Assembly (NCBI GenBank): GCA_900754955.1
Contig: CAAEEV010000026.1
Span: 1 to 36,019 of the forward strand
Direction: 5' to 3'
Length of the DNA: 36,019 nt
From: Eggerthellaceae bacterium
GTDB lineage: Bacteria; Actinomycetota; Coriobacteriia; Coriobacteriales; Eggerthellaceae
A program made the translations under genes and the position numbers. The number at the start of each line of letters is the position of its first letter. The first letter of the stretch is position 1. Below, piece after piece: positions 3,279 to 7,153 of this stretch. Below the pieces are notes generated by a model. The model had not been told where the DNA came from, ran no database searches, and saw nothing but the letters and a program-made list of their open reading frames with translations.

Positions 3279-4007
3279 ATGGCGGCATTTACCATAACCA
3301 TTGCGGGCGATTCGGCGATCAACCTTGAGTTCGCCTCGTCCATTTCGGCCGAAACGAGCACCAAGATCAGGCTGGCCGCGGAGGGCCTGCGTGCCGACCC
3401 CATCAAGGGCGTCATCGAGCTCGTGCCCACGTTCTGCTCGCTCATGGTGGTGTACGACCCGTGCGTCATCACCTTCGATGAGCTGGCGGCGAAGGTGCGC
3501 GGCAAGCTGCGCAACCTCACCGCGGAATCGACCGCCGTCAAGCGCATCGTGGAGATTCCCGTGTGCTACGGCGGGGAATTCGGCCCCGACATCGCCACCG
3601 TCGCCGAGCACGCGAGCATGTCCGAAGACGAGGTGATCCGCGTCCACTCGGGCCACGACTACCTGATCGACATGCTCGGCTTCCTGCCGGGCTTCGCCTA
3701 CCTCGGCGGCCTCGACGAGCGCCTGCACACGCCGCGCCTCGCTACGCCGCGCACGCGCCTCGAAGCGGGATCGGTCGGCATCGGCGGCGCGCAGACGGGC
3801 GTCTATCCGCTGCCCTCGCCCGGCGGATGGCAGATCATCGGCCGCACGCCCGTGCGTCCCTACGACCCTGATCGCACGCCGCCCATTCTCTACTCGGCGG
3901 GCGACTACCTGCGGTTCGTCCCCATCACGCCGAGCGAATACCAATCAATCGACGCGCAGGTGAAGGCAGGCACCTACGAGTGCACGATCATCGTGGAGGA
4001 GAAGTAG
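3279..4007 (+). CDS. pxpB: 5-oxoprolinase subunit B (KipI / allophanate hydrolase subunit 1)
   Basis: A 242-residue protein of the PxpB/KipI (AHS1) family. Recognisable parts are an N-terminal FTITIAGDSAINLEF, the central GFLPGFAYLGGLD, and the C-terminal GSVGIGGAQTGVYPLPSPGGWQIIGRT. With PxpC and PxpA this family forms the ATP-dependent 5-oxoprolinase that opens L-5-oxoproline to glutamate; the same fold makes half of the carboxyltransferase domain of urea carboxylase. The ATG at 3279 follows GAGGAAG. It is separated from pxpC by a single base, so the two are translationally coupled. It is slightly longer than E. coli PxpB (about 218 residues). Confidence 0.93.
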   Translation: MAAFTITIAGDSAINLEFASSISAETSTKIRLAAEGLRADPIKGVIELVPTFCSLMVVYDPCVITFDELAAKVRGKLRNLTAESTAVKRIVEIPVCYGGEFGPDIATVAEHASMSEDEVIRVHSGHDYLIDMLGFLPGFAYLGGLDERLHTPRLATPRTRLEAGSVGIGGAQTGVYPLPSPGGWQIIGRTPVRPYDPDRTPPILYSAGDYLRFVPITPSEYQSIDAQVKAGTYECTIIVEEK

Positions 4008-4008
4008 C

Positions 4009-5148
4009 ATGGGCGTCACCGTCATCAAACCTGGCGTCTGCACCACCGTGCAGGACCGCGGGCGCTACGGATACATGGGCAGCGGCTTCTCGCCCTCGGG
4101 CGTGATGGACCGCCGCGCCTTCCGCATCGCCAACTTGCTCGTCGACAACGACGACAACGCCCCCGTCCTCGAATTCTGCCTCGCAGGCCCCACGCTGCGC
4201 TTCACCACCAACACCTTCATCGCCATCACTGGCGCCGACTTCAACCCCACGCTCAACGGCAAGCCCATTCCCATGTACATGGCGGTGCTCGTGAAGCGCG
4301 GCTCGGTGCTGTCGTTTACCGCGCCGCGCAAGGGCGTGTACGGATACCTCGCCATCGCCGGCAACTCGCTCGCTGTTCCCGAGGTGATGGGCTCGCGCTC
4401 GACCAACCTCAAGTGCGCGATCGGCGGCTGGAAGGGCGGCAAGCTCACGACGGGCGACTACCTCCCCTTCGCGACGAAAAACGTCGACTTCCTGCCCAAC
4501 CTCGCCTCGCACATGATCGACTACGACTCCGACTTCTACCAGTGGGACGCCAACGAGATCACGCTGCGCGTGGTGCCGGGCCCCCAGGACGACATGTTCA
4601 CCGAAGAGGGCCGACGCACCTTCTACAGCGAGACGTACCACACCACGCCGCAGTGCGACCGCATGGGCTTCCGTCTCGACGGACCCGCCATCGACACGGT
4701 CGACGGATCGGACATCATCTCCGACGGCATCGCGTTCGGAGCCGTGCAGGTGCCCAACCACGGCCGCCCCATCATCATGCTCGCCGACCGTCAGACCACG
4801 GGCGGCTACGCGAAGATCGGCACCGTGGCCACCGCCGACATCCCCAAGCTCGTGCAGTGCGCCCCCGGCCGCGCCATCCGCTTCGAGCGCGTGAGCGTTC
4901 AGGAGGCGCAGGACCTCTACCGCGCCGAGGCGCGTAAGGTGAAAGCGCTGCGCGCGCTTGTGTCGCGTCCCTCCGCGGGCGGCATCTCGCCGCGCCGCAC
5001 CGCGCGCCGTCTGCTTCCGGTGCTCGAGCGCCAGTCGCGCAAGTCGGAAGGCCAGACGCTCTGGATCGAGATGAGCGAGCGCATGGATGCCGCGCGCGAC
5101 ACGGAGACGAGGCGCGGTGAACCCCCCGAAGACGCCGCGCAAGACTGA
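4009..5148 (+). CDS. pxpC: 5-oxoprolinase subunit C (KipA / allophanate hydrolase subunit 2)
   Basis: A 379-residue PxpC/KipA (AHS2) protein. Landmarks are the start VIKPGVCTTVQDRGRYGY, the GVMDRRAFRIANLLVDN segment, a middle GPQDDMFTEEG, and DRQTTGGYAKIGTVATADIPKL towards the end of the conserved core. It pairs with PxpB. The conserved fold ends near residue 310; about 70 further residues, rich in Arg, Ser and Glu, form a probably disordered tail not present in the roughly 310-residue E. coli protein. It starts one base after the pxpB stop. The downstream 154-bp gap to accB contains a degenerate tandem repeat. Confidence 0.92.
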   Translation: MGVTVIKPGVCTTVQDRGRYGYMGSGFSPSGVMDRRAFRIANLLVDNDDNAPVLEFCLAGPTLRFTTNTFIAITGADFNPTLNGKPIPMYMAVLVKRGSVLSFTAPRKGVYGYLAIAGNSLAVPEVMGSRSTNLKCAIGGWKGGKLTTGDYLPFATKNVDFLPNLASHMIDYDSDFYQWDANEITLRVVPGPQDDMFTEEGRRTFYSETYHTTPQCDRMGFRLDGPAIDTVDGSDIISDGIAFGAVQVPNHGRPIIMLADRQTTGGYAKIGTVATADIPKLVQCAPGRAIRFERVSVQEAQDLYRAEARKVKALRALVSRPSAGGISPRRTARRLLPVLERQSRKSEGQTLWIEMSERMDAARDTETRRGEPPEDAAQD

Positions 5149-5149
5149 T

Positions 5150-5302: not shown

Positions 5303-5788
5303 ATGGAAACGAGTAACATCAAAGAGCTGCTGGCCATTATGGATGAAGGCGAGCTCACGGCGCTGCGCTACGACGACGGCGACGTGAAGATCGAGCTCGA
5401 GCGTTCACCGCACGCGTTCACGGGCACGTCGTTGCCGCTCATGGCGGAGCGCGTGAGCGAGCTGCTGCACGCCCGCGACGACTCCACCGGCGTGACGGCC
5501 GGCGCCGCCAGCGCTCCGCTCGCGGTCGAGGAGGACACCACGTCGATCGTGCGCTCGCCCATGGTGGGCACGTTCTACATCGCGCCGAGCCCCGACGAGG
5601 ATCCGTTCGTGAAGGTGGGCCAGGAAGTGCTTACCGGCCAGACGCTTGCCATCGTCGAGGCCATGAAGATGATGAACGAGATCACCGCCCCGGCGCCGGG
5701 CATCGTGACCGAGGTGTTCGCCGAGAACGGCGCGCAGGTTGAGTACGACCAGCCTCTCTTCCGCATTACCACCGAGGCCAAGGCGTAA
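5303..5788 (+). CDS. accB: Biotin carboxyl carrier protein (BCCP)
   Basis: A 161-residue AccB-type carrier. It has a short N-terminal helical region (residues 1-35), a linker rich in Ala, Thr and Glu, and a C-terminal biotinyl domain from about residue 82, opening with SPMVGTFY. The biotin-accepting lysine is K122 in EAMKMMNE. Biotin ligase would modify K122, and the domain then shuttles CO2 between a biotin carboxylase and a carboxyltransferase. RBS AAGGAG precedes the ATG. It sits 15 bp before accC in the pxp operon rather than beside accA/accD, so its partner may be the PxpB/PxpC pair and not fatty-acid synthesis. Confidence 0.93.
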   Translation: METSNIKELLAIMDEGELTALRYDDGDVKIELERSPHAFTGTSLPLMAERVSELLHARDDSTGVTAGAASAPLAVEEDTTSIVRSPMVGTFYIAPSPDEDPFVKVGQEVLTGQTLAIVEAMKMMNEITAPAPGIVTEVFAENGAQVEYDQPLFRITTEAKA

Positions 5789-5803
5789 GGCGCGGGGACC
5801 AAC

Positions 5804-7153
5804 ATGTTCAGCAAAGTCCTCATCGCCAACCGCGGCGAGATCGCCGTGCGCGTCATCCGCGCTTGCCGCGCCATGGGCATCAAAACCGTCGCCGTGTACT
5901 CGACGGCCGACCGCACGTCGCTGCACGTGTACCTCGCCGACGAGGCCGTGTGCATCGGACCGGCGCCTGCGCGCGACTCCTACCTCAACACCACCGCCAT
6001 CCTTGCAGCCGCCAAGATGACCGAGGCCGACGCCATCCATCCCGGCTACGGCTTTCTTTCCGAAAACTCCACGTTCGCCCGCATGTGTCGCGACGCCGGC
6101 ATCGCGTTCATCGGGCCGGCGCCCGAGGTCATCGACCGCATGGGCAACAAGAGCGCCGCGCGCCGCACCATGATGGAAGCGGGCGTGCCCGTGGTTCCCG
6201 GCACGCGCAAGGGTCTCCACGACGTCGACCTCGCCATGGAGCAGGCGCGCGAGATCGGCTGGCCCATCATGATCAAGGCGTCGTCGGGCGGCGGCGGCAA
6301 GGGCATGCGCGTCTCCGAGAGCGAAGCCGACTTCGTGGAGCAGTTCGCCATCGCGCAGCGCGAAAGCGCGAACGCCTTTGGCGACAACACCATGTACCTC
6401 GAGCGCTGCGTGATGAACCCACGTCACGTGGAGGTGCAGATCATCGCCGACAACCACGGGCACGTGGTGGCGCTCGGCGAACGCGACTGCTCCATCCAGC
6501 GCAACCATCAGAAGATGATCGAGGAGAGCCCTTCTCCCCTGCTCGACGAGGAGATGCGCCAGCACATGATGGACGACGCCGTGAAGGCGGCGCGCGCCGT
6601 GGGCTACACGAGCGCCGGCACCATCGAGTTCCTCGTCGACGAGAACCGCAACTACTACTTCATGGAGATGAACACGCGCATCCAGGTGGAGCACTGCGTC
6701 ACCGAGATGGTCACGCACACCGACCTCGTCGGGGAGATGATCCGCGTGGCGGCGGGCGAGGACCTTTCGTTCACGCAGGACGACATCCGCATTGAGGGCC
6801 ACGCCATCGAGTGCCGCATCAACGCCGAGGTGCCCGAGAAGAACTTCATGCCCTCGCCCGGCACCATCTCGCAGATGCACCTGCCCGGCGGCAACGGCGT
6901 GCGCGTCGACACCGCCGCCTACGACGGCTTCGCCATCTCGCCGTACTACGACTCGATGATCGCGAAGATCATCGTGCACGGTCGCGACCGCCGCGAAGCC
7001 ATCGCGAAGATGAGCACCGCCATCGAGGAGATGGTGGTCGTGGGCGTGGGCACGAACCTCGACTTCCAGTACGCCATCCTCAACAACGAGACGTTCAAGG
7101 AGGGTCGCGCCGACACGAGCTTCATCGAGAAGTTCCTGCGCGGAGAGGTGTAG
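5804..7153 (+). CDS. accC: Biotin carboxylase
   Basis: A 449-residue biotin carboxylase of normal family length. It has an N-terminal Rossmann-like part (VLIANRGEIAVRVIRACR), an ATP-grasp domain with the glycine loop GGGGKGMR at about 162-169, the catalytic segment ERDCSIQRNHQK at about 226-237, and EMNTRIQVEH at about 288-297. It carboxylates biotin on BCCP using ATP and bicarbonate. No carboxyltransferase alpha/beta genes occur in the window. Placement directly behind pxpB, pxpC and accB suggests a dedicated carboxylase; housekeeping acetyl-CoA carboxylase remains possible if accA/accD lie elsewhere. A GC-rich hairpin follows 50 bp downstream. Confidence 0.95.
   Translation: MFSKVLIANRGEIAVRVIRACRAMGIKTVAVYSTADRTSLHVYLADEAVCIGPAPARDSYLNTTAILAAAKMTEADAIHPGYGFLSENSTFARMCRDAGIAFIGPAPEVIDRMGNKSAARRTMMEAGVPVVPGTRKGLHDVDLAMEQAREIGWPIMIKASSGGGGKGMRVSESEADFVEQFAIAQRESANAFGDNTMYLERCVMNPRHVEVQIIADNHGHVVALGERDCSIQRNHQKMIEESPSPLLDEEMRQHMMDDAVKAARAVGYTSAGTIEFLVDENRNYYFMEMNTRIQVEHCVTEMVTHTDLVGEMIRVAAGEDLSFTQDDIRIEGHAIECRINAEVPEKNFMPSPGTISQMHLPGGNGVRVDTAAYDGFAISPYYDSMIAKIIVHGRDRREAIAKMSTAIEEMVVVGVGTNLDFQYAILNNETFKEGRADTSFIEKFLRGEV

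What the first reader, a model, noticed from the sequence alone, without database searches (positions are those of the whole stretch)
3279..7153. Possible split biotin-dependent lactam/amide carboxylase: pxpB-pxpC-accB-accC
Seen: KipI-like, KipA-like, BCCP (biotin lysine K122) and biotin carboxylase genes lie in one tight plus-strand block with no acetyl-CoA carboxyltransferase genes in the window. Known: urea carboxylase is a single chain of biotin carboxylase, a carboxyltransferase domain built from KipI/KipA-like halves, and BCCP. Inference: these four genes are the same enzyme in pieces, with a substrate such as 5-oxoproline or another cyclic amide, and PxpA (19374-20135) as the hydrolase. 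That would make 5-oxoproline opening here biotin- and bicarbonate-dependent, unlike the E. coli enzyme.
Basis: partly seen in the sequence, partly recalled or inferred. Interest (0 to 1): 0.8.

Follow-up and report, generated by a model that had tools for sequence, protein, structure and literature searches.

The report
5-oxoprolinase genes with biotin carboxylase
A gut-type bacterium keeps genes for opening the small cyclic amide 5-oxoproline in one block with genes for a biotin (CO2-carrying) enzyme, a pairing that recurs in distant microbes and suggests, but does not yet prove, that the ring is opened with the help of biotin.

Summary
In detail: pxpB, pxpC, accB (biotin Lys122) and accC lie in one plus-strand block (3279-7153), followed by a ycsI gene; pxpA is 12 kb away and no accA/accD was found in the window. 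The source looks like Eggerthellaceae; no whole genome was held. The pairing recurs in Clostridia, lactobacilli, rhizobia, Moraxella, Rubrobacter and haloarchaea, and AccC and PxpC trees need several separate gains or losses of it. PDB 9yx5 has PxpBC-like MSMEG_0435/0436 bound to a mycobacterial acyl-CoA carboxylase complex. A split, urea-carboxylase-like enzyme is therefore plausible. Against it: at seven columns separating urea-carboxylase-side from unlinked subunits the window is unlinked-type at all seven; its clade is nested among pxp loci without accBC; four of seven unlinked pxpBC genomes tested show no biotin carboxylase; and in two relatives the linked accC is the only biotin carboxylase found although accDA is present, so it may serve acetyl-CoA carboxylase.

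The parts
3279..4007 (+). pxpB (KipI-like; carboxyltransferase subdomains C/D)
   Evidence: PF02682 3.3e-75, TIGR00370 over cut-off; unlinked-type at 6 of 6 PxpB columns that separate urea-carboxylase-side from unlinked rows
4009..5148 (+). pxpC (KipA-like; carboxyltransferase subdomains A/B)
4960..5145 (+). C-terminal extension of PxpC, residues 318-379, of unknown role
   Evidence: a similar SPR.TARRL..ILE..A stretch is in the 7 Eggerthellaceae-type relatives aligned; modelled as helices at low confidence
5149..5302 (.). intergenic gap pxpC-accB with short GC-rich repeats
5303..5788 (+). accB, full-length BCCP
   Evidence: TIGR00531 over cut-off, PF00364 1.8e-22
5666..5668 (+). codon of the biotin lysine K122 (EAMKM)
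   Evidence: biotinylation itself not tested
5804..7153 (+). accC, biotin carboxylase
   Evidence: TIGR00514 over cut-off; aligned along its length with solved biotin carboxylases; groups with pxp-linked AccC of L001-L003, support 99/93
7412..8254 (+). ycsI-like (D-glutamate cyclase family / putative hydro-lyase)
   Evidence: PF07286 8.6e-66, NF003969 over cut-off; also in the blocks of L105 and L146
8316..9251 (-). LysR-type regulator, convergent with the block; link inferred from position only
   Evidence: PF03466, PF00126
9350..10306 (+). SLAC1/TDT-family transporter; link inferred from position only
   Evidence: PF03595 3.3e-17
17640..18944 (-). Nramp-family transporter, divergent from pxpA
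   Evidence: PF01566 1.9e-88; an Nramp gene is annotated in the L146 block and a similar transporter ORF precedes pxpA in L105 (by eye)
19374..20135 (+). pxpA (LamB/YcsF), the expected ring-opening hydrolase
   Evidence: PF03746 2.5e-100, NF003814 over cut-off; next to accC in L001-L003

Best explanation
The block encodes a split, biotin-dependent 5-oxoprolinase-type enzyme. Inferred mechanism: AccC uses ATP and bicarbonate to carboxylate the biotin on AccB; AccB carries it to the PxpB-PxpC pair, which moves the carboxyl group to the amide nitrogen of 5-oxoproline (or a close lactam); PxpA hydrolyses the activated ring and the N-carboxyl group is lost as CO2, giving glutamate. YcsI probably supplies or uses 5-oxoproline (D-glutamate cyclase chemistry; from the family name only). 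Shown: gene identities, order, recurrence of the pairing and the fold of PxpC. Inferred: complex formation here, carboxyl transfer, substrate, dependence on biotin. The pairing was probably added to an ordinary pxpABC system in an ancestor of the Eggerthellaceae/Clostridia clade, because its nearest PxpC relatives in the tree lack it.
For: pxpB-pxpC-accB-accC-pxpA in tandem in L001, L002, L003. pxpA-pxpB-pxpC-accB-accC-ycsI in L105, and the window's gene set in one block on an L. brevis plasmid. accC within about 3 kb of pxpBC in 13 of 21 plasmid regions opened, a hand-picked set. AccC of pxp blocks is not one clade (23 rows, three of them Eggerthellaceae presumed linked; p-AU 0.0023), and PxpC needs at least 6 (63 rows) or 8 (107 rows, quick tree) changes of the state 'with a biotin carboxylase' (linked or urea carboxylase; five Eggerthellaceae rows presumed linked): repeated association. 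The linked copy is additional to an accBC-accDA set in G003; in G179, which has a pxp-linked accBC, the best AccA match is weak (E 9.3e-14). In Eggerthellaceae-type hits, 10 PxpC/AccC pairs (PxpC 65-72% identical to the window's) share the same longest-contig length, down to 3,925 bases (lists of the best 120; compared by eye). PDB 9yx5: long-chain acyl-CoA carboxylase complex of M. smegmatis with MSMEG_0435-0436 bound, AccA3 in the same entry.
Against: At 7 columns that separate urea-carboxylase-side subunits (14 rows) from unlinked ones (120 PxpC, 115 PxpB rows), the window has the unlinked-type residue in 7 of 7 (PxpC S238; PxpB G99, E100, R153, L154, S180, W184) and L001-L003 in 21 of 21. 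Linked lineages with pxpA on the urea-carboxylase side have the other residues, so these columns may track biotin use rather than urea. Of 7 unlinked pxpBC genomes tested, 4 (G004, G026, G043, G070) had no biotin carboxylase match, G013 and G099 one each, G005 five. The pairing is rare in even samples: 2 of 64 genomes examined in the phylum of G003, 3 of 56 places in the phylum of G005 plus 2 urea carboxylases. In G001 and G002 the linked AccC is the only biotin carboxylase found and accDA is present. In the window pxpA is not in the block. 9yx5 shows binding, not carboxyl transfer, and I saw only its title, chains and alignments.
Confidence: 0.48

Rival explanations
1. PxpABC here is the ordinary ATP-dependent 5-oxoprolinase that needs no biotin. 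AccBC is linked for another reason: PxpBC docks on the biotin carboxylase and regulates it, or the genes are co-regulated.
For: Window PxpBC is unlinked-type at 7 of 7 separating columns and its sister rows lack accBC. pxpBC occurs in genomes without any biotin carboxylase found (4 of 7 unlinked genomes tested). 9yx5 as titled ('with MSMEG_0435-MSMEG_0436 bound') is equally consistent with a regulatory partner.
Against: accB-accC lie between pxpC and pxpA in L001-L003, and different AccC lineages were joined to pxpBC repeatedly, which mere co-regulation explains less well. Some blocks carry two BCCP genes (L138, L276).
Confidence: 0.27
2. accB and accC here are the cell's ordinary (or shared) acetyl-CoA carboxylase subunits that happen to lie beside pxpBC.
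For: Both pass acetyl-CoA carboxylase models. In G001 and G002 the linked AccC is the only biotin carboxylase found and a fused AccDA lies elsewhere without accBC beside it in the stretches read; G256 likewise has one biotin carboxylase match and accA-accD elsewhere. The window's AccC falls among Bacillota AccCs, two of them with accDA. Eggerthellaceae hits that carry a name are named acetyl-CoA carboxylase subunits.
Against: Recurrence in unrelated lineages; a second, accDA-linked set in G003; only a weak AccA match in G179; PMC6249292 (one passage read) reports both accB/accC and PA0493/PA0494 in P. aeruginosa. Sharing and a pxp role are not exclusive.
Confidence: 0.2
3. The four genes form a biotin-dependent carboxylase for another amide (hydantoin-like, N-acyl or ureido compound), with PxpA as hydrolase.
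For: Substrate cannot be read from sequence. Linked blocks elsewhere sit near amidase, cytosine-permease and Zn-hydrolase genes.
Against: In the window, L105 and L146 the companion is a D-glutamate cyclase family gene, which points to 5-oxoproline, and PxpB and PxpA pass 5-oxoprolinase models.
Confidence: 0.05

Closest known systems
Prokaryotic 5-oxoprolinase PxpABC (E. coli YbgJKL; Niehaus et al. 2017, recalled, paper not held)
   Different: accB-accC in the block; PxpC misses NCBI's PxpC equivalog cut-off (250.3 against 500) and has a C-terminal extension.
Urea carboxylase (K. lactis 3va7/5i8i; copies L177, L184, L282, L285)
   Different: Four separate chains; lacks the urea-carboxylase-side residues at 7 of 7 columns; PxpC not in the urea-carboxylase-side clade.
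M. smegmatis long-chain acyl-CoA carboxylase with MSMEG_0435-0436 (PDB 9yx5)
   Same: A KipA/KipI-type pair physically with a complex that contains a biotin carboxylase; MSMEG_0436/0435 carry the equivalents of R153, S180, W184 and S238 (read by eye; L154 differs, the rest is unclear).
   Different: BC and BCCP fused in AccA3 and, by the title, an acyl-CoA carboxylase; no paper on it found, so the role of the pair is unknown to me.
P. aeruginosa PA0492-PA0496
   Same: A BC homologue and an AccB homologue in the PA0493-PA0496 operon besides accB/accC (PMC6249292, one passage; PMC5521831, passages). That PA0492 is YcsF-like and PA0495/PA0496 KipI/KipA-like is recalled.
   Different: Gamma-proteobacterial; sequence not compared here.
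ATP- and bicarbonate-dependent caprolactamase CapAB (PMC8453981, passages)
   Same: ATP-dependent lactam opening that needs bicarbonate.
   Different: Unrelated hydantoinase/oxoprolinase family; no biotin enzyme in the passages read.

Membership tests
PxpABC 5-oxoprolinase | PxpB equivalog | tested here: met
   TIGR00370 215.8 bits, cut-off 145.55
PxpABC 5-oxoprolinase | PxpC equivalog NF045499 | tested here: not met
   250.3 bits, cut-off 500; the broader TIGR00724 is met. Whether unlinked relatives pass was not tested
PxpABC 5-oxoprolinase | PxpA present | tested here: met
   PF03746 and NF003814 over cut-off, but 12 kb away
PxpABC 5-oxoprolinase | ATP-dependent opening of 5-oxoproline | not testable with these tools
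   needs enzyme assay
Urea carboxylase | BC, CT and BCCP in one chain (TIGR02712) | tested here: not met
   best 560.4 bits (AccC) against 1303.85; separate genes
Urea carboxylase | residues shared by urea-carboxylase-side carboxyltransferases at 7 columns | tested here: not met
   0 of 7 in the window; the columns were chosen from these alignments without the window
Urea carboxylase | carboxyltransferase fold of the KipA half | tested here: met
Acetyl-CoA carboxylase AccB/AccC | family models and biotin lysine | tested here: met
   TIGR00531 and TIGR00514 over cut-off; K122
Acetyl-CoA carboxylase AccB/AccC | AccA/AccD partner in the same genome | not testable with these tools
   no whole genome held; none found in the window
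Split biotin-dependent KipA/KipI carboxylase (proposed) | physical complex and carboxyl transfer | not testable with these tools
   only the 9yx5 relative shows binding

The most novel reading that the evidence does not exclude
5-oxoprolinases switch repeatedly between direct ATP use and biotin-borne CO2. The accBC-linked forms are a second, biotin- and bicarbonate-dependent class of 5-oxoprolinase, and the ordinary PxpABC of many Bacillota descends from such an enzyme: its PxpC still ends in what looks like the leader of a biotin carrier protein whose biotin domain is gone (30 of 123 unlinked PxpC tails at p<0.01, 0 of 26 linked or Eggerthellaceae tails).
Probability: 0.18. Interest if true: 0.8.

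Novelty: new variant of a known kind. Interest (0 to 1): 0.56.

Why it matters
If true, many 'second acetyl-CoA carboxylase' accBC pairs beside pxpBC are misnamed: for example PMC12427679 (passages) reads the extra BC/BCCP of Lp. pentosus as lipid and energy metabolism and its pxpBC as a separate oddity, and PMC6249292 (passage) calls the P. aeruginosa pair of unknown precise function. It would answer the question put by Lombard and Moreira (PMC3199775, passages and section 8), whether stand-alone urea-carboxylase-type carboxyltransferase halves work with other biotin carboxylases, and would give a natural comparison of two ways to spend ATP on opening the same amide.

Tried and rejected
A genome-wide test of accA/accD in the source organism: no genome held. 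Placing the source: only by AccC and PxpC hits whose sources name Adlercreutzia, Gordonibacter, Eggerthella, Paraeggerthella, Arabiibacter, Berryella, Denitrobacterium. The genome-contig scan with PxpC found 5 relatives and no Eggerthellaceae although one search shows them; I do not know why.

PxpC C-terminal extension as a mark of the pairing: rejected; linked tails are not longer than unlinked ones (median 22 against 27). Convergent residues shared by the linked lineages outside the urea-carboxylase side: a scan listed columns that depart in 3 or more of 5 groups but no clear single signature, and no control was run. At 47 PxpC columns over 90% conserved in unlinked rows the window differs at 2 (R111Y, G120S), and at 0 of 32 in PxpB.

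AccB-type leader in unlinked PxpC tails: 2 of 123 at p<0.01, about chance; only L072 scores high (52).

Fusions as proof: P0170 joins PxpC and AccB in one frame (542 aa) but rests on one 2.2-kb contig; P0158 (PxpB-PxpC) looks frame-shifted at the junction and P0017 (AccC, 663 aa) repeats itself, probably assembly errors. I do not use them.

Pfam scan for a biotinyl domain in four unlinked PxpC with leader-like tails: none listed. Viral and metagenome collections were not scanned.

Papers: no paper in the held open library was found that proposes biotin-dependent PxpBC with AccBC; most subscription journals are not held. PMC13274462 (C. glutamicum pxpTABC; listing and term search only) has biotin in two places not about the enzyme and none of the other five terms.

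
Full report
What is there. Gaps are 1, 154 and 15 bases. A PF07286 gene (YcsI; Pfam calls it D-glutamate cyclase) follows at 7412-8254; a LysR gene is convergent at 8316-9251 and a SLAC1/TDT transporter lies at 9350-10306. PxpA (19374-20135) lies 12 kb on, divergent from an Nramp gene (17640-18944). The biotin lysine codon is K122. No terminator-like site was found in 3040-8320; the 154-base gap holds short GC-rich repeats. 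AccDA and decarboxylase-type carboxyltransferase queries found nothing significant in the window. Close relatives of AccC and PxpC, where named, are Eggerthellaceae (Adlercreutzia, Gordonibacter, Eggerthella and others). No whole genome is held for the window.

Is the pairing more than chance? A scan of genome contigs with PxpC gave 5 loci. Three (L001, L002, L003; MAGs titled Clostridiales and Blautia) have pxpB-pxpC-accB-accC-pxpA in tandem; L004 has pxpB-pxpC-ycsI; L005 has pxpB-pxpC-pxpA followed by a PF01039 carboxyltransferase gene and an accC piece at the contig end. In an even draw of 199 genomes from the phylum of G003 (the Blautia MAG), 66 have PF02626. I fetched 67 places from 63 of them and had G003 as L003; G171 and G095 (fragments) and a second fragment in G007 were left out. 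accBC is adjacent in 2 of these 64 genomes, G003 and G179. In 198 genomes of the phylum of G005 (a Geobacter MAG), 47 have PF02626; of 56 places fetched, 3 have accC beside pxpBC (L220, L225, L226) and 2 are whole urea carboxylases (L177, L184). 16 of the 67 and 19 of the 56 places have under 4 kb on one side, so some links may be missed. So the pairing is a minority arrangement in these two samples.

It is nevertheless widespread. I opened 21 plasmid-record regions chosen by hand from lists drawn from 743 and 559 matching records: 13 have accC within about 3 kb of pxpBC (Rhizobium, Agrobacterium rubi, Sulfitobacter, Bradyrhizobium, Terrarubrum, Moraxella, Levilactobacillus brevis, Lactiplantibacillus plantarum, Rubrobacter, and the haloarchaea Haladaptatus and Halostagnicola), 2 are urea carboxylases, 1 (Agrobacterium vitis, L142) has two carrier genes but no AccC match, and 5 have none. 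This is not a rate. The L. brevis plasmid has pxpB-pxpC-accB-accC-ycsI-pxpA-Nramp, the window's gene set in one block; G179 has pxpA-pxpB-pxpC-accB-accC-ycsI, preceded by a transporter ORF that looks Nramp-like by eye. Among Eggerthellaceae-type hits, 10 PxpC/AccC pairs (PxpC 65-72% identical to the window's) have the same longest-contig length, as short as 3,925 and 4,662 bases, which I take as linkage (best 120 of each search; compared by eye).

Trees. A 41-row AccC tree puts the window with Eggerthellaceae (100/99) and then with the pxp-linked AccCs of L001-L003 (99/93), inside a group that includes the accDA-linked AccC of G003 (100/97). Holding all 23 pxp-linked AccCs as one clade is rejected (p-AU 0.0023), and so is holding the 13 outside the urea-carboxylase-side loci (p-AU 0.0008); three Eggerthellaceae rows are counted as linked by presumption. 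A 63-row PxpC tree needs at least 6 changes of the state 'with a biotin carboxylase' (linked, or part of a urea carboxylase), a 107-row quick tree 8; five Eggerthellaceae rows are again presumed linked, and such counts cannot tell gain from loss. In the 63-row tree urea carboxylases and 9 linked rows (rhizobial 'allophanate' type, Sulfitobacter, Haladaptatus, Rubrobacter, and the three from the phylum of G005) form one supported clade (100/98), while the window, Eggerthellaceae and L001-L003 form another (100/98) whose sister is the unlinked L004 (100/99), among unlinked rows. In the 107-row tree one unlinked row, L130, lies in the urea-carboxylase-side clade.

Two classes. I asked which columns separate 14 urea-carboxylase-side rows (4 urea carboxylases, 10 linked) from unlinked rows (120 PxpC, 115 PxpB; five odd or fragmentary loci left out). 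Seven columns passed (at least 75% and 60% conserved, under 15% overlap): PxpC 238, PxpB 99, 100, 153, 154, 180, 184. The window, which was not used to choose them, has the unlinked-type residue in 7 of 7, and L001-L003 in 21 of 21. Other linked rows off that side are mixed: lactobacilli 10 of 14 unlinked-type and 0 urea-carboxylase-type, Rhizobium/Moraxella 20 of 28 and 3, L105 3 of 7 and 1. So there are linked sets with urea-carboxylase-type subunits, where a split biotin enzyme is very likely, and linked sets with 5-oxoprolinase-type subunits, to which the window belongs.

Who else could use this accBC? G003 and G179 have a second biotin carboxylase; in G003 it lies with accDA, and G179 has only a weak AccA match and an orphan second biotin carboxylase. 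But G001 and G002, relatives of the window's block, have one biotin carboxylase match each, the linked one, and a fused AccDA elsewhere without accBC in the stretches read; G256 looks similar. Completeness of these assemblies is not given. So the linked accBC may also feed acetyl-CoA carboxylase. In the other direction, of 7 unlinked pxpBC genomes tested, G004, G026, G043 and G070 have no biotin carboxylase match (pxpA was seen in the last three), though they have a biotin ligase, while G013 and G099 have one and G005 five: ordinary PxpABC does not seem to need one, with the caveat that assemblies may be incomplete.

Most likely mechanism. AccC makes carboxybiotin on AccB from ATP and bicarbonate, PxpBC carboxylates the amide of 5-oxoproline, PxpA opens the ring. 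This copies urea carboxylase plus allophanate hydrolase in separate parts. Gene content, order, recurrence and fold are shown; binding, transfer, substrate and dependence on biotin are inferred. I give it 0.48. The rivals are a biotin-free PxpABC with AccBC as a docking or regulated partner (0.27), an ordinary or shared acetyl-CoA carboxylase pair (0.20) and another amide (0.05).

What is known. Lombard and Moreira (PMC3199775; passages and section 8 read) asked in 2011 whether stand-alone urea-carboxylase-type halves work with other biotin carboxylases. PMC6249292 (one passage) notes the PA0493-PA0496 operon of P. aeruginosa, with an extra BC/BCCP set of unknown precise function; PMC5521831 (passages) shows PA0492-PA0496 lowered together on ParB overproduction. 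PMC12427679 (passages) reports an extra BC/BCCP and pxpBC in Lp. pentosus without joining them. Sources already name PxpC relatives 'biotin-dependent carboxyltransferase family protein'. So the arrangement is not new; a tested function is what is missing in what I could read.

A side result that may matter more. Many unlinked PxpC end in a stretch like MRIWVNGTEYIVEIERL (L067), which resembles the leader of decarboxylase-type biotin carriers (MKNYTITVNGNVYEVTVEE in G001). By 300 shuffles each, 30 of 123 unlinked tails reach p<0.01 against three such leaders, and 0 of 26 linked or Eggerthellaceae tails; controls give 4 of 145 (PxpB ends, including L088 and L077 with scores of 40 or more), 3 of 122 (PxpA ends) and 0 of 155 (PxpC middle). 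Against AccB-type leaders the unlinked tails give 2 of 123, about chance. The p-values are uncorrected, the idea came from looking at the tails, and the tails are related by descent, so they are not 30 independent cases. It suggests a lost or displaced carrier domain in the history of ordinary PxpC.

Noticed in passing
L064-L071, L074, L077, L078, L086, L089, L117 and others, C-terminus of PxpC: Unlinked PxpC tails resemble the leader of decarboxylase-type biotin carrier proteins (30 of 123 at p<0.01; controls 0 to 4 per set); L072 resembles an AccB leader.
   Followed up: partly
L142 4367-7779 (Agrobacterium vitis plasmid NZ_CP056049): Two biotin-carrier genes beside pxpBC and pxpA with no AccC match in the region, where the related L138 has accC between two carriers.
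   Followed up: partly
L001/G001, L002/G002: The pxp-linked AccC is the only biotin carboxylase found, with a fused AccDA on another contig; suggests one accBC pair feeding two carboxyltransferases.
   Followed up: partly
L005 6052-10402: pxpB-pxpC-pxpA followed by a PF01039 carboxyltransferase gene and an accC piece at the contig end.
   Followed up: no
window 5150-5239: Short GC-rich repeats (11- and 22-base spacing) in the pxpC-accB gap.
   Followed up: no
window 10894-15423: NrfD, FeS protein (by sequence), molybdopterin oxidoreductase and nitrate-reductase-delta-like genes: a respiratory oxidoreductase cluster between the pxp block and pxpA.
   Followed up: no
window 15571-17388: LuxR-type regulator with a long hydrophobic N-terminal part.
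   Followed up: no
P0170 (542 aa, one 2.2-kb contig): PxpC and AccB in one reading frame; could be a real fusion or a sequencing error.
   Followed up: no
window 20631-24207: Amino-acid ABC transporter genes (SBP_bac_3, BPD_transp_1; ATPase by sequence) just beyond pxpA on the other strand; amino-acid ABC transporters also flank pxp blocks in L137, L138, L276.
   Followed up: no
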